Below are positions 48,768 to 64,000 of a stretch of DNA of 64,000 bases, piece after piece; positions within the stretch are counted from its first letter, which is position 1; each line of letters opens with the position of its first letter. Source of the DNA: Xylogone sp. PMI_703 (Eukaryota > Ascomycota > Leotiomycetes); NCBI GenBank assembly GCA_021399445.1, contig JAJTUQ010000005.1, forward strand, positions 2,356,001 through 2,420,000, in the 5' to 3' direction. Under the pieces are notes generated by a model, which had not been told where the DNA came from, ran no database searches, and saw only the letters and a program-made list of their open reading frames with translations. Both the position numbers and the translations under genes were made by a program.

Positions 48768-49679
48768 TTATAAGTACTTAGCCAACAGATCCTCAATCTC
48801 CTCATCACTCATTCCCTTAATCCCAAGTAATTCATTATCCAGATGTTCTGAGAAATCTCCCCCATATCCTTCCGCGAGGACAGATAGATGGAGCAGTGGA
48901 AATAGCCCCTTCGTAATATCTGGCTTGTCTTTCTTGAGCTCCTCATATGCACGAGCTTCAGCTTCAGCACAAGTTATGTGAGTGAGATTCCACTCCTTGC
49001 CATCCAACTTCTTTGCCATCGCGATAAGCTTGTTCTGTGTGACTACCGCATCGTGAATATACACATGCCGGTTTTTGGTCTCCTCAAGGTGATTAATGAT
49101 GCTCACAACGGCCTTCCCAATTGTTGCCGTGGTTGTGGTGCTGAATGGAAGGTCGCCACCGTCGTAGATAGTAGCACTATGTGTCTTTGGACTAACAAGG
49201 AACCCGACCTCGAATCCCCAGTCGAGGAATGCTCCGGGGCAGAGTGCAGTGTAGCTGAAGGAAGGATTTGTGGCCACTTTAGCTTTGAGATACTCCAATG
49301 TCTGTATCTTGTTATCAAATATCGGGAGCTTCCTGCATTTGGGGTTTTCCGTGTCGGTGCCAAACTCCGCAGGAAAAAAGCGCGTTACTCCCGCAGCAAT
49401 GCAGGCATCGATAAGTACGTCTTGACTGCCTACAGCAGCTGCGACGGGTACACATGCGATCACAACTTTGTAGCCCTCTAGAGCACTGGTTATAGAGGTG
49501 AGTGAATTATAATCCACTTCAGTAACACTCAAGTTAGGGTGCTTGGGTAGCTTGGAGGAACTTGTACTTCCAGGTCGACTAAGTGCCGTGACCAAGTGCC
49601 CAGCTGCCAACAGTTCGTTTACTATGGGAATACCAGCATTTCCTGTGGCTCCGACAACCGCAACTTTGATGGGAGACAT
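48768..49679 (-). CDS. NmrA-like/isoflavone reductase-family protein
   Basis: Atypical SDR of the NmrA/phenylcoumaran benzylic ether reductase family, 303 residues, single exon. The N-terminal GATGNAGIPIVNELLAAGH is the NADP-binding motif, followed by LSRPGS. The segment VDYNSLTSITSALEGYKVVIACV and RFFPAEFGTDTENP are typical. The family can be a redox enzyme or a redox-sensing regulator. It sits at the far end of the minus-strand group with the FAD monooxygenase and the repeat precursor, so it may reduce an intermediate of the same pathway. That is inference from position only. Confidence 0.9.
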   Translation of the reverse strand: MSPIKVAVVGATGNAGIPIVNELLAAGHLVTALSRPGSTSSSKLPKHPNLSVTEVDYNSLTSITSALEGYKVVIACVPVAAAVGSQDVLIDACIAAGVTRFFPAEFGTDTENPKCRKLPIFDNKIQTLEYLKAKVATNPSFSYTALCPGAFLDWGFEVGFLVSPKTHSATIYDGGDLPFSTTTTATIGKAVVSIINHLEETKNRHVYIHDAVVTQNKLIAMAKKLDGKEWNLTHITCAEAEARAYEELKKDKPDITKGLFPLLHLSVLAEGYGGDFSEHLDNELLGIKGMSDEEIEDLLAKYL

Positions 49680-50387
49680 GATTTCTGGAAGATGATAAAG
49701 CCTAAGAACAATCGAAGAGTAGGATCAATCAGCCTTGGAGTGCTAGCCAGAATGGAACGAAGAGCAAGCCCTGGGAACAGCGATTCTTACAGTATATATA
49801 TTTATGGCAGTGGGGTGACGTAGATTTCCGATGGGGAGTTAGGCTGGCTCTAAAGTAAAACATTTTCACCTGACATGTTCCAGGATTTGTCGATTGAAAT
49901 CTCTACAGACCTGTGGAAAAAGCCAATCTGATATGACTGCAACCAATGAGCTTATTGACCACTTAGCCCCGAAATGACATATTGGATGCGTGTGCGGGTT
50001 GACTTTAATGGATCTCATAAATCCGCAGAATTTCCGCCGCTTCCAATGTCCAGCATAGACGACTAACTCGCGGTTACTAATCATAGCAGGATCTTCCTCT
50101 TATCGCCGAATCTCGAGCTACATTGGTAATTATACCTTGAAAGTTCCCTATGGCTTAATTGAGGCAATATTGCAGAATCGGGTTAAAGACGAAATGTGGA
50201 TGTTGTTGACGTCCACTAAGCATTGTTACGAGACTACTTCCCTGTCAGAACCCAGACACAACGGGGTATAAGCAGCCAGTTCAACCTGAGTTCTCCTTTT
50301 GTTCTGACATTCCCGTACATTTGTAGTCTTCATGGTAATGAGAAATCGGTAAATTTCTGCTTCTATAGTCTATTACCTTAAAATACT
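49680..50387. other. intergenic region
   Basis: Spacer between two minus-strand genes with a TATATATA at about 49792-49800 for the reductase. Nothing else recognised. Confidence 0.4.
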
Positions 50388-51835
50388 TTACCGCCTCAAT
50401 CCAGCCTTCTCTACAGCCTCGTTGTACTCGGCATTGATATCCGCCGTCCACACCCACTTCATTCGTCCCTTCAGTTTCGCGCTGAAGATGGGGAGGCGCT
50501 CATCGTAACTCAATCCCTCGAACTCAGGGCCCCTCATTTTCAGTGTCTCACCTGCCTCTCGAGACGCTTTCTGTGAACGCTGGGCCCTTGGTAGTCGCAG
50601 ATTCTGATACATTTGTGTCCATGTTGATAGCTTGTTTGTGATATCTTCGGATTTACCTTTAGACTGGAGGTAATCCCTTAACGCTAAACCGAGAATGAAA
50701 GCGTCTTCAATTGCATGGCCAGCTCCAGATCCTGACATTGATCAGCAGTCTTATCAAAAGGTCACTTACTAATATATACATACCTTGATGCGGTAGCATG
50801 GCGTGAGCTGCGTCACCTAAAAGCACCACCTTTCCATCAAGATATATCCATTGCTCCAATAAATCCCTGTCATTGATTCTCCATTTGCCGACTCGTTGGT
50901 CCATTTGCTCGATTAAGTGTCTAAGCGTTGGATCCCACCCTGAAAACTCGGCCTCCAACTCACTTCTATCGGCGGAGCTCGTCCAACTCTCTTTCAGATC
51001 ACCCAGCTCTTCTTCGGACTTGGCAACAAAAGCAACAGCATTGAGCGTCTTGTTCTGAGAGATGGGAAATATCAAGAAATGTTTGCCAGGCCCGACCCAT
51101 GATACAGCATAGGATGAGAATGGCCAGTTGGACGATACAGAAGACATGGGCAGGAGACCACGGTATGCGATCTGTCCAGCATAGCGAGGAGAGTCATTCG
51201 GGGCAAACTGAGAGCGTATTACAGAATGAATACCATCCGCACCAATAACAAGATTGGCAGTTACAGAAGTAGAGTCTTGAAAGGTAACTGTCACTTGCTC
51301 CTCGTTCGTTTCCTAAGCATCAGAGCAGGTTAGCCCTAGTCATGAAGAAAAACAACTTTAGCATGCATAAAAGGATAATATCATCGCTCACCTCAACTTC
51401 AACCGCCCTTTTATCCGTATGCAATGTTGCTACCTTTTGATCTTTGACTGCTTGGACCAGAACATCTAAGAGCTCAGCTCTATGAACAGACAACTGTCTA
51501 ATGGCCGGATCTTTTGAATCATCCATGGCCTCGATGGTTACTATCTCAGAGCCATCATCGTATCTCCGATTGCTCCGGTGAATGCCATCACGCTCGCCTG
51601 AGATTGCGTTGACCTCTGGACCAACTCCGATGCGATGCAGGATTCGAGTGGCATTGACGCTGATACCAATGCCAGCTCCGATCTCCTTGTACTGAGGCGC
51701 CTGCTCGTAGACGGAGATGTTGATGCCAGGACAATGATGTGCCAGAGAAAGCGCAGTGGTAAGACCACCGATGCCACCGCCAATGATGGCGACGTGAAAA
51801 TCTTCTACGTTTTCAATATGTGCGGTTGACCCCAT
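50388..51835 (-). CDS. FAD-dependent monooxygenase, salicylate hydroxylase-like
   Basis: Class A flavoprotein hydroxylase (PF01494-like). Exons 51835-51392, 51312-50784 and 50731-50388 join in phase to 438 residues. Motifs: the dinucleotide site VAIIGGGIGGLTTALSLA at residues about 15-32, an Arg region SVHRAELLDVL, the DG motif NLVIGADGIHSVIR and the GD motif VVLLGDAAHAMLPHQGSGAGHAIEDA spanning intron 2. All are intact. Flavin monooxygenases occur in ustiloxin-type RiPP clusters, where they oxidise side chains of the crosslinked peptide. Here it lies beside the repeat precursor, 1.2 kb away on the same strand. Other roles, such as aromatic hydroxylation in an unrelated pathway, remain possible. 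Confidence 0.92.
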
Positions 51836-53018
51836 GTTGTGCCCTAGTCGTTCAACTCTCAAGCACTCTCAACCTGGGAAGATGTTTCTCTGATCATCCG
51901 GACCCTTGTTATACATGAAATAAGGTTTTCTTTGGAGATGAAGTTCTATGCCCACCTATGACCCGAAGCTTCGGAGTTACATCCGACGTGCAGATTCACC
52001 TCTGGTGGTAGCTTGGGGGAGGGAGGTTGATGTGGGGAATGCGGGGAGTTTTCAAGCACAATCTCTTTTATTGTGTATCACTATTTCTTATTTATCTTTT
52101 CGAAATGCATCATATCCCTCATTTCCATTCAGTTCAATATCCTCAACTCTGCATCCCCGTGCAAGCTAAATAAGCATTTTATAATCGATCGCTGTGTGCG
52201 TTTAGCAATCCTATCTTATAGCATCTTGTCGATGGGCCTGCACGGAGTTTGCGATTTGGACATTCATAGCTATATGCTGCATCTTTCATCCCGTGGGGAT
52301 ACTGCAAACGTGGCTACTCCATCTCAACCTGGAGGTCTCCATCCCTCACAGCGACTGTACTTCCTAGATCTAATGGTTATGGGGGGGTTACACTAATAAA
52401 TAGCAGAGTAATACGGAGATTATGTTTTGAGTCTCTAAAGTTAATAGCCTACCTTATCAATCTTACTAGCCTACTTTTGAAAAATGATTAATCACTGTAG
52501 TAACTAAATGGTTATATGAGTGGATAATACGGAAGATATGCGTTCCACACTACTTGAAGATACCGAATAGTAATCTCATGGCAATCTTCGAGGTACAAAG
52601 GGCATCCCGCAACGTACGGGTATATATAGTCAGAGACATTACATGGTAAAGCAATAACACTCACTCAAGGAGAGTAATGCCTTATAAAGGAATGACACAA
52701 AGCGCAAGCATACACAGTGCTTGGGTCCTGCATATTGCCGTTACGCATATAGAGAGAGATAAAATCATGATATTATTTCTCCGCAACGTATCTTTTGATT
52801 TCAACAATGTATGTTAAGGCGTTGTGGACGGCTTATAACGAGCGACTGGTATGCGGCGTGAAAAATGCCTGGCTTTAAGTCGTTCACGTCAAATTTCACA
52901 AGAAATAAAGGAGGATTATCTGTATCATCTCATCTTATTTCACGCGTATCTAATCTAATTTATCTTTCTGGTCTCAAGTTACCTTCATCTGCAATTTCAT
53001 AGCTACATGTTACATTTC
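51836..53018. other. intergenic region
   Basis: 1.2 kb with no gene recognised. A TATATATAG at about 52621-52629 on the plus strand has no ORF behind it. Confidence 0.4.
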
Positions 53019-53781
53019 TTAATTTCCATTGGCCTTCTTCTTTGCAGCGGCGGCCTCTTTTGCTGCAATCTGAGCTTCTGTGTGGTGAGGTTCTCTCTTG
53101 CCATTCTTTCCATTAGCCTTCTTTGCGGCAGCTTCTTTAGCAGCAATCTGGGCTTCAGTATGGTGAGGTTCACGCTTATCAACCCAAGATCCGAATTCAT
53201 CTTCCTCAGAATCCCAAGGCCCAAACTCATCGGGAGGGGGAGTTTGAGGTTCGCGCTTGTTATTCTTGTTCTTGTTCTTCTTCACCGCGGCGGCTTCCTT
53301 CGCAGCAATTTGAGCTTCGGTATGATGAGGTTCTCTCTTGCCATTAGCCTTCTTTTTCGCAGCCGCCTCCTTGGCGGCGATTTGAGCCTCAGTATGATGA
53401 GGCTCGCGTTTATCAACCCAGGACCCGAATTCGTCCTCCTCGGAGTCCCAAGGGCCGAATTCATCAGGTGGTGGAGTTTGAGGTTCACGTCGGTTATGAC
53501 CCTTCTTCTTTGCTGCGGCTTCTTTGGCTGCGATTTGAGCTTCGGTATGGTGACGGGCTTCAATATCGGGTAGGATAGATCGCACAAGTCTATCAGCCAG
53601 AGCTGATTCGGCATCCTAAGAAAATAATGAGATCTAAGCCGAGAAGTTGGAATTGGGATCATAGGCTTACAGCAACTCGCCGTGCAAGACCTTGAGCGCC
53701 TGCAATTGGGAAGGCAGCGGTCATAGGAACAGAAGCAACGAGGCCGAGAAACAAGGCCTGCGTGATAGATTTTGAATGCAT
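53019..53781 (-). CDS. Kex2-processed repeat protein, candidate RiPP precursor
   Basis: Secretory protein of 235 residues from two exons, 53781-53671 and 53615-53019. A signal peptide of about 23 residues (ends SVPMTAA) and a short pro-region lead to seven units cut at dibasic sites. Two identical acidic units (residues 81-105 and 159-183) begin EPQTPPPDEFGPW and end DEFGSWVD before KR. Each contains the motif EFG-x-W twice. Five basic units share HHTEAQIAAKEAAA followed by a Lys/Asn-rich tail; the first lacks the EP start. Most units begin EP after KR, suited to Kex2 and then dipeptidyl peptidase trimming. No cysteine is present, which argues against an alpha-factor-type cyclic pheromone. 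Two UstYa genes lie divergently upstream, as in dikaritin clusters. I know no family with this core. Confidence 0.85.
53022..53552 (-). repeat. coding tandem repeat array of the precursor
   Basis: Order of units in the direction of transcription: basic 53552-53487, acidic 53486-53406, basic 53405-53334, basic 53333-53253, acidic 53252-53172, basic 53171-53094, basic 53093-53022. The two acidic units differ at 13 of 81 bases and every difference is silent. Confidence 0.9.
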
Positions 53782-54525
53782 CTTGAAATATGTGAGGTTC
53801 GAATAAGTGTGATCAGAATGATGAGTAAAAAGGAGACTTAGTTGAGGATAGAAAGAGAGCGTATGAAGCAAGATGAAGTTAAACAAAGACTGGCCAGCAG
53901 TCAACTAGAAAAGAATACAAGTGATTGATGAGATGAGATGAAATGTGAATGAGATAAAAAAATGAAAGTTGAAAGCTTGCCACCCTTATATACTCTTCGA
54001 ATGTAGAGCCATTGGCTACTATTAACCAGAAGATCAAAAGAATACCCGCAATTCAGCGCGTATTGTTACCGCTCACCCCTTCAAACTTGTCTTCCCGACA
54101 GTAGATCGTTTGACGAAGTGGAAATACTACCATATTCCTTGTTATTCATGCCAATTTCTACAGAGATGCAATTCGATACGAGTAACTGAGTCTCGGGCTG
54201 GGGTAGAAGCGCGTTGCCAAACCTCGCTTGTAACAACTTGGGATCAACAAGGAGCTCGTAAAACACTAGGCGGTTACGGAGAGAAAACGGGAGAAAGCTA
54301 GCATTGTAACAAAATTCCGCATCTGAGAACAATTCAAACTATTGATGGCAGGCTGGCTCCTCGGTATTAATCACAATTCTCAGACCATTTTCCCGGTGTT
54401 AGCTAAGGAAATCCTCTTCCCACTTGCTCCTATATACACAAAAGTCTCGTCGAATCCCTCTAGGCTTTGCTCTTTTAACCACCTTGCTCACATACAAATT
54501 TAACACTTCCATACTTCACATTATC
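53782..54525. promoter_or_regulatory. divergent promoter of precursor and first UstYa gene
   Basis: A 744-bp region separates the precursor start from the UstYa start on the other strand, so both may be switched by one regulator. A TATA-like TATATAAGG on the minus strand at 53984-53992 suits the precursor with a 5' leader of about 200 bases. A TATATA at about 54431 suits the UstYa gene. No regulator site was recognised. Confidence 0.5.
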
Positions 54526-55525
54526 ATGGTCTTCGAATATCGATCTATACAGTCAGTACCTCTTGATGAGAAGCAGCGCCGTTTGTCAACAGACTCGGCT
54601 TCGACTCTCCATGTTATCGGTGATCTCGACTATTTATCACAAGAATCAGGCCCAGTCTTTGGCAATACACCTTTCGGTCAAAGAGCATCTTTGTGGTTGG
54701 GATCAAAGTGGATATTGGCAGTCAATGCTATATTGTTCCTTTCCTCCTGCGGCATACTTGCGATTTCTCTCTTAGTTCACCCATCGACGTTATATCATGT
54801 TCAGCACGTTTCAGCATGGTGTGAGTATTTGATGCAATAGATTTTGAAAGGATTTTCACTGATATCACTCAGCACCGGCGGATAAATCAGTGCGATATGA
54901 ACATGTTCGCTACAATATCACCACCCAAGATAATCCATTTGTTGGTGCGGGTCCAGAAGTTGATAAAGCGTGGAGGGAAATTTCATACGATAGTGAGTGA
55001 AATTTTACTAGTAGCATGCAGTATCCTAACTTTTGCCAGTGGGAGACCAGTGGATATCGAAGGCAGATCTCCCAAGATTGGACATGCCAGTGACTTCACT
55101 CACAGTTGATCATCCCACTACAGGAGAAGAAGGATACCGCGTTGGGATGGAAGTTTTTCACCACCTTCACTGCCTCAATCTCTTGCGACGAGTTACCTAC
55201 AAACATTACTATGAACCACTTGGCGGCGAATTTGGACATGGCCCCGAAGCTCTGAAGATGCACACTGGTAAATAATCCGAGTCCACCATTGAAATCATGA
55301 TAGCAAGATTAACAGGTGCCAGATCACTGCATTGAAGTACTTCGCCAAAATATCCAGTGTAACGCCGATATAGGTTTGTTCACCTTCTACATGGTTCCTG
55401 GAGACCCGCTCGCTTGGCCACAGCTGAATTCGAAGCATGTATGCCGCAACTTTGACGCAGTGCGTCAGTGGGCAATAGAGAACTCAGTTGGGAATATGGA
55501 AATTATTGTAGACAAGGTTAATTAA
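54526..55525 (+). CDS. UstYa-family (DUF3328) oxidase-like protein A
   Basis: Type II membrane protein of the UstYa/DUF3328 family, whose members catalyse oxidative macrocyclisation, hydroxylation or chlorination of peptides. Exons 54526-54820, 54873-54992, 55040-55267 and 55323-55525 join in phase to 281 residues. A cytosolic tail of about 60 residues precedes one membrane segment (KWILAVNAILFLSSCGILAI). The lumenal part carries WREISYDMGDQWI and the two family HxxHC motifs: HHLHC at 179-183 and HTDHC at 213-217. The second is split by the last intron, whose acceptor is GTGCCAG rather than the nearer AACAG. The conserved LRQNIQCNADIG follows. It is divergent to the precursor and tandem with a second UstYa gene. 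Confidence 0.9.
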
Positions 55526-56258
55526 TGTAGATATGTTTGAATCATAACTGATAGACAATATAAACGTAGTGAAGACTGCTACCAGAGTTTACTGGTTATT
55601 TACTGAACATGCCGCAAAATCTGAATTATACTGTTTCTAGGGTACAAATTATGAGTCCACTGGGAAATGATCCATTATGCTCTAGTATTGCTAAAAAGTC
55701 GATATGCAAGTATGCACTTTTGCAGAGTTGCATTTGCGTCGTACCTCAAACCCTGCCAAGCCGGTTATTCTGACTGCGGCATTTAACTCTTATGGTAGCA
55801 CAGGCCGCTGAAGCGCCAAGACTTTATCCGTCAAGACTTTCCTGAACGCTTGGACCTTAAGCACTCTAATTATTCTGGAATGAAACATTAGCTTGATCAC
55901 CGGAAAGAATACGCATCATTATGGACCTCCCGGAGAAGACTACCAATAACGCACACCCACGGAAGATCCCTCAACTTGGTGTTCCAGATGTAAAATCGGC
56001 CATTGTCGATGAGACGTTTGAGGAAGCACCGGCCGCATTTGAGTACTTCGGGCAGGGTTTCGGATTCATGTTGTATTAGCTGAAACACGGGGTTTTGGAT
56101 ATTCTAACAGTATGGTTTTGAAGTGAAGCAGCTACATTAGTTCTCTTCCATTCTACGTAGCTAAGATCAAAAGATAAACAAATATACCATACTCTTTTTT
56201 AACTTTGAAGGCTTCTTCCTAGACCGGCAGATTGGCCTACCTTAGCCGCAACATCAAA
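55526..56258. other. intergenic region between the two UstYa genes
   Basis: AT-rich, 733 bp, no gene recognised. Confidence 0.4.
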
Positions 56259-57327
56259 ATGTTAACAGGAGACGAATATTTGAGATTCAACAAAGATGCT
56301 TCCAGTCACATGCTTGAGGACGAAGATCTAGAAGACATTGGTTCTGACACAACAAAAGCTTCTGAGGAGACTTTCCGCAAATCACATCTTCTTCCTCATG
56401 AGCAATTTCTGGACCCGTCAACTTCTCCATTAGCACAAAGAAGGGCAATAAGAAGAGCTCAAAAGTCAAACATGTTATGGACTTGGTTAAGATGGGCACT
56501 AGTCGTCGGATTACAGGTGATTATGATAATACTTCTGTTGGTCACTCGGAGAGAAAAGGGGTCACCAAAAGAGAGCCCTGTTCTTCTGGCTGCGGGCAAT
56601 AAGGCAGTCGAAACAGGTGGTGATATTAATGGACTTTACAAAACATGTAAGTGCTACATAATTGGATATGTGGCCTCGGACCAAAGGTATGCCTAACACA
56701 ATACAGTGTCCCATTCTTATACGTTTCTAAAACCCGAAGAGGATAAATATATCCCTAACATGACTTCAAATGATAACCGTATGGAAGTGCGGAAGAATTG
56801 GGATTTATTAATGCCACGTATGGAATCAGCTCCTCGTTATGAGAAAATTCATTGATAATCCTCACAGTTGGGAGTGGGAGTGTCTTAATTCCAGATTATC
56901 GCGATCACCCTCTCCTTGGGAATCCCATTACCGATGATCCCATTCGTTCAGGGCCGTTATTCGAGGCATCTTGGACGCATGCGCTCCATTGTGTAAGAAA
57001 TCTATATATTCTCTGCAAGAGACATGACCACCATTCACCATACTGACTCTGTTTTCGTACGTCTAGCTATATTACGCCGTTGATAGCTACCACCAGCTCA
57101 TACTCAACGGTCCAGGCGAGAACGACAATCCCTACCATGCTGCGCACTGTTTTGAGTATCTGCGCAACAGCATCTTATGTAACCTTGATATGACCCTTGA
57201 AGGATCAATGTCCACGCCGAACGATAAAGATAGAGGCCAGCCACATGTCTGTAGAAATAGAGAAGAAGCGATTGCTTGGATTGAGGCCAGGAGGGCCGAC
57301 GATGCACAAGACATTGTAGGGCCATAG
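56259..57327 (+). CDS. UstYa-family (DUF3328) oxidase-like protein B
   Basis: Second member of the same family. Exons 56259-56646, 56707-56817, 56868-56992 and 57067-57327 join in phase to 294 residues. The N-terminal tail is about 70 residues, with basic RRAIRRAQK before the membrane segment WLRWALVVGLQVIMIILLLV. The lumenal part has NWDLLMPLGSGSVLIPD, then HALHC at 204-208 and HAAHC at 232-236, both of the HxxHC type, and LRNSILCNLDMTLEG. It differs strongly from protein A outside the motifs, so the two are not a recent duplicate and may do different steps. Paired UstYa enzymes are usual in ustiloxin-type pathways (UstYa/UstYb). Confidence 0.9.
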
Positions 57328-58239: not shown

Positions 58240-61200
58240 TCACGCCGCTCCACCAGCAGCAGTAGCCTTTGGTCTTATTATTCTCTTGGCTAGACTCCAT
58301 AACTTCCCACTTCCTTTCTTCTCCCGGACGCTCGTCTCTACTACTTTAGGCTCATCTTCCTCTGGGGAGCTTAATCTTGCTAGCAATACCAATTGCTCCA
58401 TCAAAATAGGATGGAGAACTAGGTCTTCTAGGCGAAGTTTCAAGCCTTCCTGTTCTAACAGCGATGCCAGTTGTGTAAGTCCCATAATATCTCCTCCAAG
58501 ATCGAAGAATGATGACTCTGGATCGACCACGACATCTCCAAGGATCTGCCGCCAACTCCGGGTGAGAATATCAGAGTAAACTAGGAGATACTTGCGGGGC
58601 AAAGAGTCAAGGCTCGTCATATTGCGTACTGATACAAATGAAGCGTTGTAAGGTCGAGGAGCCGCAGAGAATTCGGTTGGAAGAGGCCAATATGGGTTCC
58701 TTGAGAAAGTTTCTGCGGTTTGGCAGAGTGTGTTGAAAATACCTTCCGTTGTCGCCTTGGACATGTGGATATTGGATAGGCCAAATATCATGCTGATCTC
58801 AATGTTCTCATCGTCTTGTGGAACTGATAAGATAGTAAAATCTGCAAAATCGTCCTGGGAGCCCACGCCGCCGAAGTTGTATCTGTTTTGCCCTAATTCA
58901 ATTTCCGATGTCCGCCGCATGTTTTGGTGCTGGCAGACAGTGGTGAAGTTGGTCCAGTCTGGCCATTCTGTGCAGTGCTTAACTATCTCTCGGAAGCCTA
59001 AGGACTCGTATGGCATACCGGCAACTTGCTGGTTTTGAAGATGGCAGAGGAGATTGAAAGCTGTCCAGCCTGGTTTCAAAGTGGCTCGAACCGGTATGGT
59101 ATTGACGCAGGGTCCGACAATGCTCTCAAGTCCCGAAATTGAAGAATTCCGGCCACTAATGACGTTTCCAAAGACAACATCTGGTTTTCCGGATATCTGT
59201 GCAAGTACCAGAGTCCATGCAGCTTTGATGGTAATTGCCGGGGTGATATTTTCAGGAAGCGACCTCAGCTTGACGGTACGTTTGAGAATTGTTGGTGGAT
59301 CTGGTCCTCGAGTGTAATTTGGTCCTTGGCGATGGACAATCTCTGTCATTTTCGATCCTTTAAGCAGAGATGTCCAGTATTTATAGTGGTCGTCTGTGTT
59401 CTTCCCCACAGCGCCACGCACATACCTGGCGAATGAGGGAGCTGGAGGAATTGTCTGCCCATCATATGCAAGCCGTAGTGCATCAATAATGCGTGGTAGG
59501 CAAATACCGTCGTACTGTGCATGAGAGATTCTCATGATAATACGATGATTTTCTGAGCTTCTTAGCTTGACTACTGTAAATTGGAGGTAGGATTCTCCAA
59601 GACCTGGGCCGGCTTCTCGATCTCTACGCTGCATCTCGGTAGTAAAACCATTTAGATCGTCAGTCAACTCTACGTTAAAGACTGGAGTGAGTTTCCGCAG
59701 GATGACCTGGAAGAATTGGCTACCGTACGGAATGAAAACAGTCCTCAGGATCTCGAATGCATCAACGACCCGGTTAATCGCCTGCCTCAATCGCTTAAGA
59801 TCAGTCGATCCCGTGCCTTCCAGATAAAAGTAGTTCAACATCCATCGTGACTCAAGGAGGCTGCCGGTGACAGATAAACTTTGGAAGTCTGTACATGGCA
59901 GGACATCGACAATGCCGCCTCTGAAAAGCTTAACCTTTGGACATACATTGTCCTGGAGGAAGGAATTAACATCAGCGGCCCGTAGGAGTGAGAACTTCTG
60001 GTAACGAATGCTGTTCTTTCTTGATAGGCTTGTATTTACCGCGGGTAACTCATCGTTTGTGTCCTTGTGGCGAGGATCGGACATTCCAGTCTCCACACGA
60101 ACAGCTTCGACAATATCAGCAAAAGAGGGATATCGGAATAGGTCAGCAACTGTCATAGAGAGGCCCTCCTCGCGTGCTTGTCCAACTAACTGCATTGCAA
60201 TGATTGAATCTCCCCCAAGCTTGAAGAAGTTATCTGTTGACCTGATTGACGACTCGGGGAGTTGAAGAAATTCACTCCAGAGATGGAGCATCTTTCGAGA
60301 TATGTCGTCTGCTTCGTCGACAACTGTGTTATTGAATCTTCTGTTTTCCAATTCGTCTACGGTGGTTAGAGCGTGGTTTTGTGGTAGAGCTTGATTGGTG
60401 ACTGGTGGTTGAGGAATCTGGATTTGTTGAGTCTGTATCTTAATCAAGTTCTCAAGCTGCTCTGGTAAGCTGCTTCCTGAGCTCATCAGTTGCCCGATGA
60501 TTTGCTGTACACATTCCTTGACCAACATTTGAATCTGAGCCGTTTGGTCATTTACCAGCGGCTGAGATGCGAGGCTTGGATTCAGTTCCTTGGGAAATTC
60601 CATTTCTGATACTACCTGATGAGGTTTGTCGACCGTATTGTGTAGCACATTGGCGAGATCGTTAAGGAGCTTATCAGCATATTCATCAGATAGCGCATCT
60701 GTCCAGTATCTGAGAACCGCCCCCTCGTTCTCGTGGGTAACACCGATATTAAGGGTTATAGCGTACTAATATAATATGAGCGGTCGGAACAATCTGTGAG
60801 AGGGCTCTTACTTACCTCGTTCGGATCTAAAGCGATAATTGGTGTAAATGAAATTAAAGTAGATTCCCCTACAGATGGACTGCCACTTCCCTGAACTGAT
60901 ACTGCAGTATTGAATAAATTCTTGCCAGCTAAACCGAGTTCATGCTGTATCTGCGCTAGAGAGCAGTGTTGGTATTGTAGACCTTGAAGGTAGCCATCTT
61001 GTGCAATCTGGAGGATGTCTTCTATCGTTGACTTCTCCGTAAACTTCATCCGACAAACAAGCATATTAATCACAGGCCCAACGGTGCCTTGAATCCCCTC
61101 CACTGGGATATCCCGGCCGGATGCGAGGTAACCAAAGCAAACGTCATTGGAATTGATGTATGTTCGTAGACAGATTGCCCACGCTGCTTGGAGTGCGTTT

Positions 61201-64000
61201 GCAAGCGTGACGTTCTTTGCCTGGCAGAGTGTTCGGAGCTCTGGGAAACGGTTGAAATTCAACTTGGCAACTTTCAGCTGCTTCATATTTGTGGGAACGG
61301 CGGCTGGGGATGGTGGGATGATGCAGGGCCTTATTCCTCGCAAGTTTGTTTTCCAAAACTGGATTCCAGTCTCTTCAGACTGACGCTTGAGGTATGCGAT
61401 ATAGTTTTTATACGGTGGTGCTGGAACATCTGGAAGTTGACTCTCATAAGCTGTTGCCAAGTCCGCAAGTATCACTGGTAGAGATCTACCGTCCATAATT
61501 GCATGGTTCAGCTGAAGTTTGAAATATATGCGATCCCTCGAAGTCTGGCACACCGTAAAATGATGTGGTAGACGTGGCTGTCCGACATTGTAATCACTCG
61601 GAGAGTATGATTCTAGTTTCTCCAGAGCATGCGCATCCTCAAGCTCTATGTATGCTCCTTGTTTGCCAACATTCTTTATTACAACCTGATTGAAAACGTC
61701 TCCTCGGCAAACACTATCAATAAAAACAGTTCGTAGAGCTGCATGCCGGTCCACAACTTGCTGCCATGCTCTGACCAGTCTCTTCGGGTCAATGGGGCTG
61801 GAACTTGTGGTCTCATAGATTGCATGGAATTGATAGGCGTCTGGGTCTCTCACTTGGCTGAGCAGCATGCCTTCTTGCGTTGGGGCACATGGGTAGATGT
61901 CCTCTACTTCTTGGGGCGTGATACTTGCGGCTGGCAGGACTTTTTCTAACAGTTTCTGTAAACCATCCTCGGATATCGGTAGAAGGGGTAAATCACTCAA
62001 AGTGAGGTTATACCGCCTGTTTGAATGCATAAGAGAATCGATAGACTCTTCTAATGTGTGTTTGCATTCGGAGATCCACTGGCGAAGCCGCTTCTGGTGC
62101 TTCATGTAGCGGTTGAAGACGAAAGAGAATGTCAGCTGGTCTTGGATAACAATGACGGATATTTCGATCAATGCGAGCCTTCTCGTTTGTGGGCCAACAT
62201 CAGGGGCCAGATTATTCTCGGAGTCGCTTGTTGGGCCATTCCATTGCTGCAGTAGAGAGTCTGTCTTCTCCAGTTGCTGCATACGGCCAAGATAATTGAA
62301 CATAATCTCCATCGGGCCGTTATGGATTGCAAAGTCTGATCTGCCTACAGACGTCAAATATCGTCGTGCAAAGTATGGCCTTCCATTGTTTGGTACTTTG
62401 CGATGAATTTCTTTTACTCGACAGATAGATTTCAACACATCGTCTTCTTCGGTGTCCACTTCTACATGGAGTGGATAGAGAGATGTAAACCACCCTACTG
62501 TTCTGGAAAGATCAATACTATCGTCCCAAGGCTCACGGCCATGATTCTCGTTGAAAATCGTTGGACAGTCTCGGTCTAAGAACGTACGATTGAAGGAGTG
62601 GGCGATGGCGGATAAAAAGAGCTCCACCGGTTCTGTTCGCAGTGATGCGTGACACTCTCCTATAGCACAAGTAGTCAAAGCCTTATCAATGGTGAAAGTT
62701 TCAGAATAAACATCTGAATATATATTGTTTTGGCCATCCATACCCCAATACTGAATATTGGAAGCAGGCACTTCGAAAGGTAGTACTGTATTGGCTCCGC
62801 TGAGCGCCTCCTCTTGAGCGTGTTCTGATTGCATCATACACCAGCTCTGGAACGAAATCGATGTGCTCTCTGATAATGCTCCAGTTGTGAGTATCTCTTC
62901 CAGATCTTGTAGAAGGATGCGCCAGGACACCATATCCACCACCAAATGATGTGCGGTTAAAAATAATACCTGGTCGCTTCCTAGAATATTGAATAGATCA
63001 GCGGACATCAGTGGCCCTTGTTTGATGTTGAGATTGTTCTGACTATAGTTGACATATGGAGCAATCTCAGTGGCACTTCCTATATCATAACTCTGAAAAC
63101 GATAGGAACTGGCGCAATCCTTTACTATGCGCTGCTGCCAATGTCCAGCAGAGCTTCGACTAAATCGGGCTCTAAGCACTGAATGCCGCTCAACAAGCGT
63201 ATCAATTGCAGACCTCAACTGCTGCGGTTGTATCGGCTGGGTAATCTTGAGCAGGAAACTTTGGTTGAAGTATTTTTCATGCCCATGATCGGAATCTCGC
63301 TGAGACTCCACATACATTTGTTGTATCGGAGAAAGCTCGAAATTTTGTTCCAGTTGATCATCAACCTGTGGAACATTGCTCCCCTTACGACAACTTAGTG
63401 CGAGCTGCTCGATAGATTTACTCTGAAGGATTGTTTGCAGTGTAACTTGAATAGACTCCTTTCGGCACATTGCGATCACCTGCATTCCCGTAATGGAGTC
63501 GCCGCCCAGGCTGAGGAATGAGTTCTGTAGCCTGACGTTTTGAATCGGTAGATTTAGTACTTTGGATATTATTTCTTGTATAATTTTACTCATATCCGTA
63601 GCAGGAGTGCCTTGGAAATCTTCCGTAGCTACGGAGGTGATCTTGTCGTAAGTTTGTTTGTCGATGGATTCAACCCAACTCTCAACCATACGGCGTTCGA
63701 GTTTGCCAGCGGTTGAGATGGGGATGGCTTCAACCACCAGCCATGTTGTTGGTACCATGTACCCTGGGAGTAACGAGGAGAGACGGTTTTGAACCTTTGT
63801 TGACTGCTGCTGTGCTATTGCTACTCCCGGGCCATCTTGAATCAGTCTACATGCTTGTGCAGCATTATTTGTTCTAAGGTCGTCTAAGGTCATAACTGTA
63901 ACTAGTCGTTTCTTGAATGGACCTGACTTAGGAAGTATGACCATTGCCTGATTGACATGTGGATCCTGGGCAATCGTGTGCTCAATCTCGCCCAGTTCAA
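58240..64000 (-). CDS. nonribosomal peptide synthetase, C-terminal part (gene continues past right edge)
   Basis: Two exons in window, 64000-60816 (open at its 5' side) and 60765-58240, about 1,900 residues. Domain order: end of an adenylation domain (ISTAGKLERR, its A10 lysine motif), carrier T (LGGDSITG, Ser codon at 63497), an epimerisation-type domain (AHHLVVDMVSWR, NENHGREPW, DLSRTVGWFTSL) and a condensation domain (LNHAIMDGRS). Then comes a second carrier (LGGDSIIA, Ser codon at 60207) with no adenylation domain before it, and a terminal condensation-type domain (ISHAQYDGICL). The last carrier reads DLGGDIMGL, with Ile in place of the phosphopantetheine Ser. No thioesterase is present, so release is probably by the terminal C domain, as in fungal cyclic peptides and siderophore synthetases. 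Substrates cannot be read because no whole A domain is in view. Confidence 0.95.

What the first reader, a model, noticed from the sequence alone, without database searches (positions are those of the whole stretch)
48768..57327. Candidate new fungal RiPP (dikaritin-like) gene cluster
Seen: a secreted precursor with seven Kex2-type repeat units, two divergent UstYa/DUF3328 genes with intact paired HxxHC motifs, an FAD monooxygenase and an NmrA-like reductase within 8.6 kb. Known: this set (repeat precursor, paired UstYa proteins, flavin monooxygenase) defines ustiloxin, phomopsin, asperipin and related pathways. Inference: the acidic unit with two EFG-x-W motifs is crosslinked through Phe or Trp side chains. 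It does not match any core peptide I know, so the product would be new.
Basis: partly seen in the sequence, partly recalled or inferred. Interest (0 to 1): 0.92.

Follow-up and report, generated by a model that had tools for sequence, protein, structure and literature searches.

The report
Conserved fungal repeat-peptide (RiPP) gene cluster
A fungus carries a gene for a secreted repeat protein that would release two strictly conserved small peptides, next to two copper-type enzyme genes likely to modify them; the same set occurs in several distantly related fungi, and what the peptides become and do is unknown.

Summary
In detail: a secreted precursor with seven Kex2-type units, two tandem UstYa genes with intact paired HxxHC motifs, a flavin monooxygenase and an NmrA-like reductase lie at 48768-57327 (Xylogone sp. 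PMI_703). It is a repeat-precursor/UstYa (dikaritin-type) locus, but not new as a type: it very probably belongs to KEP type G-3 of Umemura 2020 (64 proteins, 20 genera, 57 near DUF3328 genes). The family's invariant unit is not the acidic one: HHT occurs in 58 of 58 homologues, the acidic EFGxW motif in 42. Botrytis precursors lack it, and the two counted have no Phe, Trp or Tyr after the first HH; yet Botrytis keeps relatives of both UstYa genes. So Phe/Trp cross-linking is unlikely to be the general chemistry. Both units are under purifying selection here (no replacement, many silent differences). Precursor and UstYa genes share a contig in 8 of 24 named genomes, consecutively numbered in Varicellaria. 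Both UstYa trees place Xylogone with Trichoderma, not with other Leotiomycetes, which suggests horizontal transfer. The product is unknown; any cross-link must be tyrosine-free. Whether the monooxygenase and reductase belong was not testable.

The parts
53019..53781 (-). Secreted repeat precursor (KEP), 235 aa; exons 53781-53671 and 53615-53019
   Evidence: identical to F5884DRAFT_902211; no second locus found in own genome
53511..53552 (-). HH unit 1 (HHTEAQIAAKEAAA), preceded by single Arg
53406..53486 (-). Acidic unit 1, EPQTPPPDEFGPWDSEEDEFGSWVDKR
53358..53399 (-). HH unit 2, preceded by KR-EP
53286..53327 (-). HH unit 3, preceded by KR-EP
53172..53252 (-). Acidic unit 2, identical in protein to unit 1, 14 silent differences
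53124..53165 (-). HH unit 4, preceded by KR-EP
53046..53087 (-). HH unit 5, preceded by KR-EP
54526..55525 (+). UstYa-1 (PF11807), 281 aa, 4 exons; HxxHC at residues 179-183 and 213-217
   Evidence: identical to F5884DRAFT_902212
56259..57327 (+). UstYa-2 (PF11807), 294 aa, 4 exons; HxxHC at residues 204-208 and 232-236
   Evidence: identical to F5884DRAFT_441358
50388..51835 (-). FAD monooxygenase (PF01494, nearest solved relatives salicylate hydroxylase, tropone monooxygenase, TropB), 438 aa, 3 exons; membership not shown
48768..49679 (-). NmrA-like reductase, 303 aa; membership not shown

Best explanation
This is a conserved ascomycete RiPP locus of the Kex2-repeat/UstYa kind. The precursor enters the secretory path, is cut after Arg by a Kex2-type protease, and is trimmed by a Ste13-type dipeptidase (X-Pro/X-Ala steps), so that the main peptide starts exactly at His-His-Thr-Glu-Ala-Gln-Ile. 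In this lineage the same precursor also yields a second, acidic peptide with two Glu-Phe-Gly-x-Trp motifs. UstYa-1 and UstYa-2, membrane-anchored proteins with the HxxHC pair that holds two copper ions in the relative CctR, oxidise the peptide(s); the HH unit is the shared substrate across the family. The invariance and the lack of a second copy in this genome suggest a conserved signal or interaction peptide rather than a fast-changing toxin. Shown here: gene structure, repeats, dipeptide pattern, conservation, linkage, motifs. Inferred: processing, substrate, chemistry, role.
For: Published: type G-3, 57 of 64 precursors with DUF3328 within 15 genes. Units: HHT in 58 of 58 homologues; anchored on T[EKDG][AS][QR] alone, His precedes in 259 of 259 and His-His in 255 of 259. 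Of 255 HH units, 73 directly follow Arg or Lys and 182 follow a stretch ending in X-Pro or X-Ala, the Ste13 signature described in PMC6339444. Selection: five HH cores, mean 8.9 silent differences over 9.7 silent sites, 0 replacement; acidic unit 14 silent over 16.3 sites, 0 replacement. Enzymes: HxxHC residues invariant or at least 90% conserved in alignments of 32 UstYa-2 and 36 UstYa-1 proteins; models put each motif on one of two helices behind a long N-terminal helix, as described for CctR.
Against: No expression or product data. For 16 of 24 named genomes no UstYa hit of the same genome on the same contig was listed (the database shows one representative per 90% cluster, so this is weak). 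In Scytalidium lignicola, the nearest named precursor, the only UstYa-1 relative listed is of the other lineage and on another contig. No genome in my own data shows a Botrytis-type precursor and a UstYa on one contig; that link rests on Umemura's counts for the type as a whole. The deposited Botrytis tulipae UstYa-1 model lacks the second HxxHC, perhaps a splicing error since Rutstroemia has it. HH could be a recognition or structural element rather than the modified part. Nine of 58 homologues carry some Tyr after the first HH. The models are of middling confidence (pLDDT 71 and 68), are monomers, and UstYa-1 had no significant PDB match.
Confidence: 0.66

Rival explanations
1. One reading: the acidic unit is the RiPP core and is cross-linked through its Phe and Trp residues by the two UstYa proteins; HH units are spacers.
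For: The acidic motif is conserved across classes (DEFGSW 84, DEFGPW 70 copies) and under purifying selection; it holds the only Phe/Trp of the Xylogone mature region; victorin is cyclised through a Phe side chain (PMC9233826, passage). The UstYa-2 clade that goes with acidic-unit precursors is separate from the Botrytis-type clade.
Against: 16 of 58 homologues, and 9 of 24 named genomes, have no acidic unit but keep HH; Botrytis, one of these genera, has a UstYa-2 with both motifs and a UstYa-1 relative. The clade match is one evolutionary event only.
Confidence: 0.25
2. The two UstYa proteins tailor the product of the adjacent large NRPS, as DUF3328 proteins do for cyclochlorotine, and the repeat precursor is a bystander making linear peptides.
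For: NRPS 3' end at 58240, 0.9 kb from UstYa-2, convergent; DUF3328 proteins do act on an NRPS peptide.
Against: The UstYa-1/UstYa-2/precursor trio is linked in other classes, in consecutive gene numbers in Varicellaria, and type G-3 precursors are near DUF3328 genes in 57 of 64 cases. Whether the NRPS is also conserved there was not tested.
Confidence: 0.06
3. Linear-peptide system: Kex2/Ste13 processing yields unmodified secreted pheromone- or hormone-like peptides; the UstYa proteins act on another substrate.
For: The Ste13 dipeptide pattern is that of alpha-pheromones, which are linear; the HH unit has no Tyr.
Against: KEPs annotated as pheromones or mating factors are, with three exceptions, not beside DUF3328 genes (abstract), whereas 57 of 64 of type G-3 are.
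Confidence: 0.15
4. Side question, compatible with the best explanation: the flavin monooxygenase and NmrA reductase are a separate small-molecule pair that happens to lie beside a three-gene RiPP locus.
For: The monooxygenase is closest in the PDB to salicylate hydroxylase, tropone monooxygenase and TropB, enzymes of small aromatic substrates; no conservation evidence was obtained.
Against: Same strand as the precursor and within 5 kb of it.
Confidence: 0.55

Closest known systems
KEP type G-3 (#6) of Umemura 2020 (PMC7329392)
   Same: Di-histidine repeat, overlapping genera (7 of my 14 named precursor genera, Botrytis and Botryotinia counted as one, are in its list of 20), DUF3328 genes near 57 of 64; very probably the same family
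   Different: Only a computational type: in the sections I read there is no product and no mention of the second acidic peptide, the two UstYa lineages or cross-class transfer. Its motif figure and supplements were not seen, so identity is inferred
Dikaritins (ustiloxin, phomopsin, asperipin-2a, epichloecyclin, victorin)
   Same: Secreted Kex2-cut multicore precursor plus UstYa-family proteins
   Different: No Tyr in the Xylogone mature region, no tyrosinase or S41 peptidase nearby; product unknown
CctR / DUF3328 binuclear copper enzymes (PMC12435403)
   Same: PF11807/DUF3328 family, HxxHC(x)nHxxHC pair, one membrane-type helix, motif on paired helices
   Different: CctR hydroxylates an NRPS peptide; here the likely partner is a ribosomal precursor; copper not tested
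Ascomycete alpha-pheromone precursors
   Same: Repeat precursor, Kex2 sites followed by X-Pro/X-Ala dipeptides
   Different: Pheromone precursors almost never have linked DUF3328 genes; they are linear

Membership tests
Dikaritin RiPPs | Secreted precursor with repeats between Kex2 sites | tested here: met
   signal peptide judged by eye only
Dikaritin RiPPs | UstYa/DUF3328 gene(s) linked to the precursor gene | tested here: met
   linkage elsewhere in 7 further named genomes
Dikaritin RiPPs | Core peptide cyclised by UstYa proteins | not testable with these tools
   Needs mass spectrometry or reconstitution
Ustiloxin/phomopsin/asperipin type | Tyr in the core | tested here: not met
   0 Tyr after the first HH in the Xylogone precursor
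Ustiloxin/phomopsin type | Tyrosinase gene in the cluster | tested here: not met
   Nearest tyrosinase match on the contig is about 390 kb from UstYa-2
Ustiloxin/phomopsin type | S41 peptidase gene in the cluster (recalled feature) | tested here: not met
   Nearest match on the contig is about 800 kb from UstYa-2
KEP type G-3 (Umemura 2020) | Di-histidine repeat unit and DUF3328 gene within 15 genes | tested here: met
KEP type G-3 (Umemura 2020) | Sequence homology to the listed members | tested here: inconclusive
   Homologues found in 7 of its genera, but the type's own sequences and motif figure were not seen
DUF3328 copper enzymes | HxxHC(x)nHxxHC pair behind a membrane helix | tested here: met
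DUF3328 copper enzymes | Two copper ions per monomer, O2-dependent oxidation | not testable with these tools
   Needs purified protein
Alpha-pheromone precursor | No linked DUF3328 gene (three exceptions in Umemura 2020) | tested here: not met
   Two linked UstYa genes

The most novel reading that the evidence does not exclude
The UstYa pair installs a tyrosine-free macrocycle on the N-terminal HHTEAQ[I/V] peptide, joining a His imidazole nitrogen to the beta carbon of the Ile/Val at position 7. That position is Ile (245) or Val (10) in the 255 HH units counted, both beta-branched, like the Ile that ustiloxin and phomopsin cross-link. This would be a His-based dikaritin, present in five classes of Ascomycota, carried between classes as a unit, and accompanied in one lineage by a second peptide from the same precursor.
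Probability: 0.15. Interest if true: 0.78.

Novelty: new variant of a known kind. Interest (0 to 1): 0.52.

Why it matters
Five dikaritins were reported up to a 2022 review, four of them cross-linked through Tyr, and most KEP types are confined to a single genus. Here the core is nearly invariant from lichen fungi to Trichoderma, has no Tyr, and comes with a matched pair of a protein family only recently shown to use copper. That makes it a good case for asking what UstYa enzymes do without Tyr, and what so conserved a RiPP does for the fungus. Trichoderma reesei has the UstYa-2 orthologue, so a genetically easy host may be at hand.

Tried and rejected
Asked whether UstYa-2 tracks the acidic unit: it does not as a gene (Botrytis has it), though its two clades do. 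Searched paper full texts for HHTEAQ, TEAQIAAKEA, DEFGSW, DEFGPW and HTEAQIAAK: 1 paper of 5.39 million, an unrelated immunology paper. Read the Results of the Trichoderma RiPP survey (PMC7099791): the one precursor described in detail (cluster 55) is different; the others are not given as sequence in the text. Looked at passages of the T. virens M7 deletion paper: two DUF3328 genes are listed, one in a PKS cluster, one as hypothetical; not compared by sequence. Pfam on 7 precursors gave no family above cut-off. PDB sequence and fold searches for UstYa-1 gave nothing significant. Looked for a second precursor in the own genome: none; the one weak match on another contig (E 0.05) is a zinc-finger/RING protein, not a repeat precursor. 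Papers: PMC7329392 abstract and sections 6, 7, 9; PMC6339444 abstract, section 10 and passages; PMC7099791 abstract and Results; PMC12435403 abstract and passages; PMC9233826, PMC10512285, PMC7303927 passages; PMC12048977 abstract and outline; all others only as search listings. No supplementary file was seen.
Full report
What is there. The window is part of a 5.55-Mb contig of a 50.1-Mb fungal genome. The precursor, UstYa-1 and UstYa-2 are letter for letter F5884DRAFT_902211, 902212 and 441358 of Xylogone sp. PMI_703, on a contig of the same length; Xylogone is in Leotiomycetes. Gene order: NmrA (-), FAD monooxygenase (-), precursor (-), UstYa-1 (+), UstYa-2 (+), then a large NRPS (-) whose 3' end is 0.9 kb from UstYa-2 and which continues past the window (its gene model was not built). 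The introns modelled have GT-AG borders.

The precursor. It has a signal-peptide-like start (judged by eye), one 55-nt intron, and then five HH units and two acidic units, cut at KR or RR except that the first HH unit follows a single Arg. The five 14-residue HH cores are identical in protein but differ on average by 8.9 silent changes over 9.7 silent sites; the two 27-residue acidic units are identical in protein with 14 silent differences over 16.3 sites. The units were found by short motifs (HHTEAQ, EPQTPPP), so part of the identity is by construction, but the residues outside the anchors are identical too, while the Lys/Asn-rich tails of the HH units differ. Both units are therefore held by selection and are not fresh copies.

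Relatives. A search of 5.77 billion proteins gave 58 homologues at E up to 1 (7,989 candidates scored); 24 carry a genome name. HHT is in 58 of 58; the acidic EFGxW motif in 42 of 58. Of the 24 named, 15 have acidic units (Capronia, Xylogone, two Talaromyces, Scytalidium, two Fonsecaea, Cladophialophora, four Trichoderma, Icmadophila, Varicellaria, Bogoriella) and 9 have none (six Botrytis/Botryotinia, Ciborinia, Stipitochalara, Acephala). In the two Botrytis-type precursors counted for composition (P0039, P0046) there is no Tyr, Trp, Phe or Cys after the first HH. Of 255 units found by HHT[EGK][AS], position 7 is Ile in 245 and Val in 10; anchored on EAQ instead, 257 places give 243 Ile, 10 Val, 3 Ala, 1 Leu. 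Of the 255 units, 73 follow Arg or Lys directly, 162 follow one X-Pro/X-Ala dipeptide after Arg, and 20 follow longer stretches such as EAEA or SPSP. This is the Ste13 signature known from alpha-pheromones (PMC6339444, passages); I infer from it that the mature N-terminus is His-His.

Linkage. For the other 16 no such hit was listed; the database shows one representative per 90% cluster, so that is weak evidence either way. In Scytalidium lignicola the only UstYa-1 relative listed lies on another contig. UstYa-1 and UstYa-2 also have neighbouring numbers in Verruconis, Venustampulla, Bathelium and Fonsecaea monophora. Independently, Umemura 2020 (PMC7329392) lists KEP type G-3: 64 proteins, 59 strains, 20 genera, a di-histidine motif, 57 of 64 with DUF3328 within 15 genes. 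Seven of my 14 named precursor genera (Botrytis and Botryotinia counted as one) are in that list. I infer that this is the same family; its motif figure and supplements were not seen.

Enzymes. In alignments of 32 of 78 UstYa-2 hits and 36 of 115 UstYa-1 hits the residues of both HxxHC motifs are invariant or at least 90% conserved. The deposited Botrytis tulipae UstYa-1 lacks the second motif; Rutstroemia, its nearest relative in the tree, has it. Predicted monomer models (pLDDT 71 for UstYa-1, 68 for UstYa-2) show one long N-terminal helix, then two helices each carrying one motif. CctR, a DUF3328 protein, has this arrangement and is a binuclear copper, oxygen-dependent hydroxylase (PMC12435403, abstract and passages). 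The family is also linked to halogenation and macrocyclisation, so family membership alone does not tell which reaction happens here.

History. I chose 30 of the 78 UstYa-2 hits and 29 of the 115 UstYa-1 hits for trees; class labels other than those of Xylogone and Scytalidium are from memory. The UstYa-2 tree splits (100/95) into 14 rows (12 Leotiomycetes, 2 Dothideomycetes, with one very long row, Podosphaera) and 16 rows of Lecanoromycetes, Eurotiomycetes, Dothideomycetes, Trichoderma and Xylogone. The UstYa-1 tree shows the same split less firmly (86/54 and 85/95). In both, Xylogone sits with Trichoderma (100/97 and 100/99); holding the Leotiomycetes together is rejected (AU p 7e-91; p 2e-5). 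I had seen the identities before naming the group. Horizontal transfer involving Xylogone, or an ancient duplication with losses, both fit; direction is not shown. Xylogone also keeps a lone Botrytis-type UstYa-1 on contig C12 (four exon-level matches, 65-89% identical to Scytalidium g2726) with no repeat precursor seen in the 19 kb around it and no UstYa-2 match there.

How it most likely works. Kex2-type and Ste13-type processing releases HHTEAQIAAKEAAA plus a tail, and QTPPPDEFGPWDSEEDEFGSWVD (inferred). The UstYa pair acts on at least the HH unit, because that is what all members share (inferred). The reaction is unknown. If it is a cross-link, it must be tyrosine-free; a His-to-Ile/Val link is my boldest candidate. 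The monooxygenase is nearest to salicylate hydroxylase, tropone monooxygenase and TropB and the NmrA protein to eugenol synthase and pinoresinol reductase; nothing obtained here ties either to the peptide.

Novelty. The kind of system is known and the precursor family had very probably been counted as a type. Not found in print in ten paper searches of open-licence full texts (supplements not seen): the two-peptide anatomy, the purifying selection on both peptides, the matched UstYa lineages, and the cross-class placement.

Noticed in passing
58240-64000 and on into L013 (minus strand): Large multimodular NRPS whose 3' end converges on UstYa-2; condensation, carrier and adenylation domains found.
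   Followed up: partly
55921-56079, + strand: A 52-codon ORF between the two UstYa genes, no Pfam match; may be a gene remnant or nothing.
   Followed up: partly
G000:C12:1938255-1939242 (L018-L020, L022): A lone Botrytis-type UstYa-1 gene, the Leotiomycete lineage, with no repeat precursor or UstYa-2 seen beside it.
   Followed up: yes
own genome, 25 contigs: 108 exon-level UstYa (PF11807) matches, a number of them close together: this fungus is rich in UstYa loci.
   Followed up: no
UstYa-2 alignment A1: Botrytis-type UstYa-2 proteins carry an extra stretch (such as FGFDGERND) before the second HxxHC that acidic-unit-clade proteins lack; possibly a substrate-pocket difference.
   Followed up: no
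PMC7329392, Table 2: KEP type G-8 is a second di-histidine type with DUF3328 genes in 45 of 49; His-His may be a wider theme in Tyr-free UstYa substrates.
   Followed up: no
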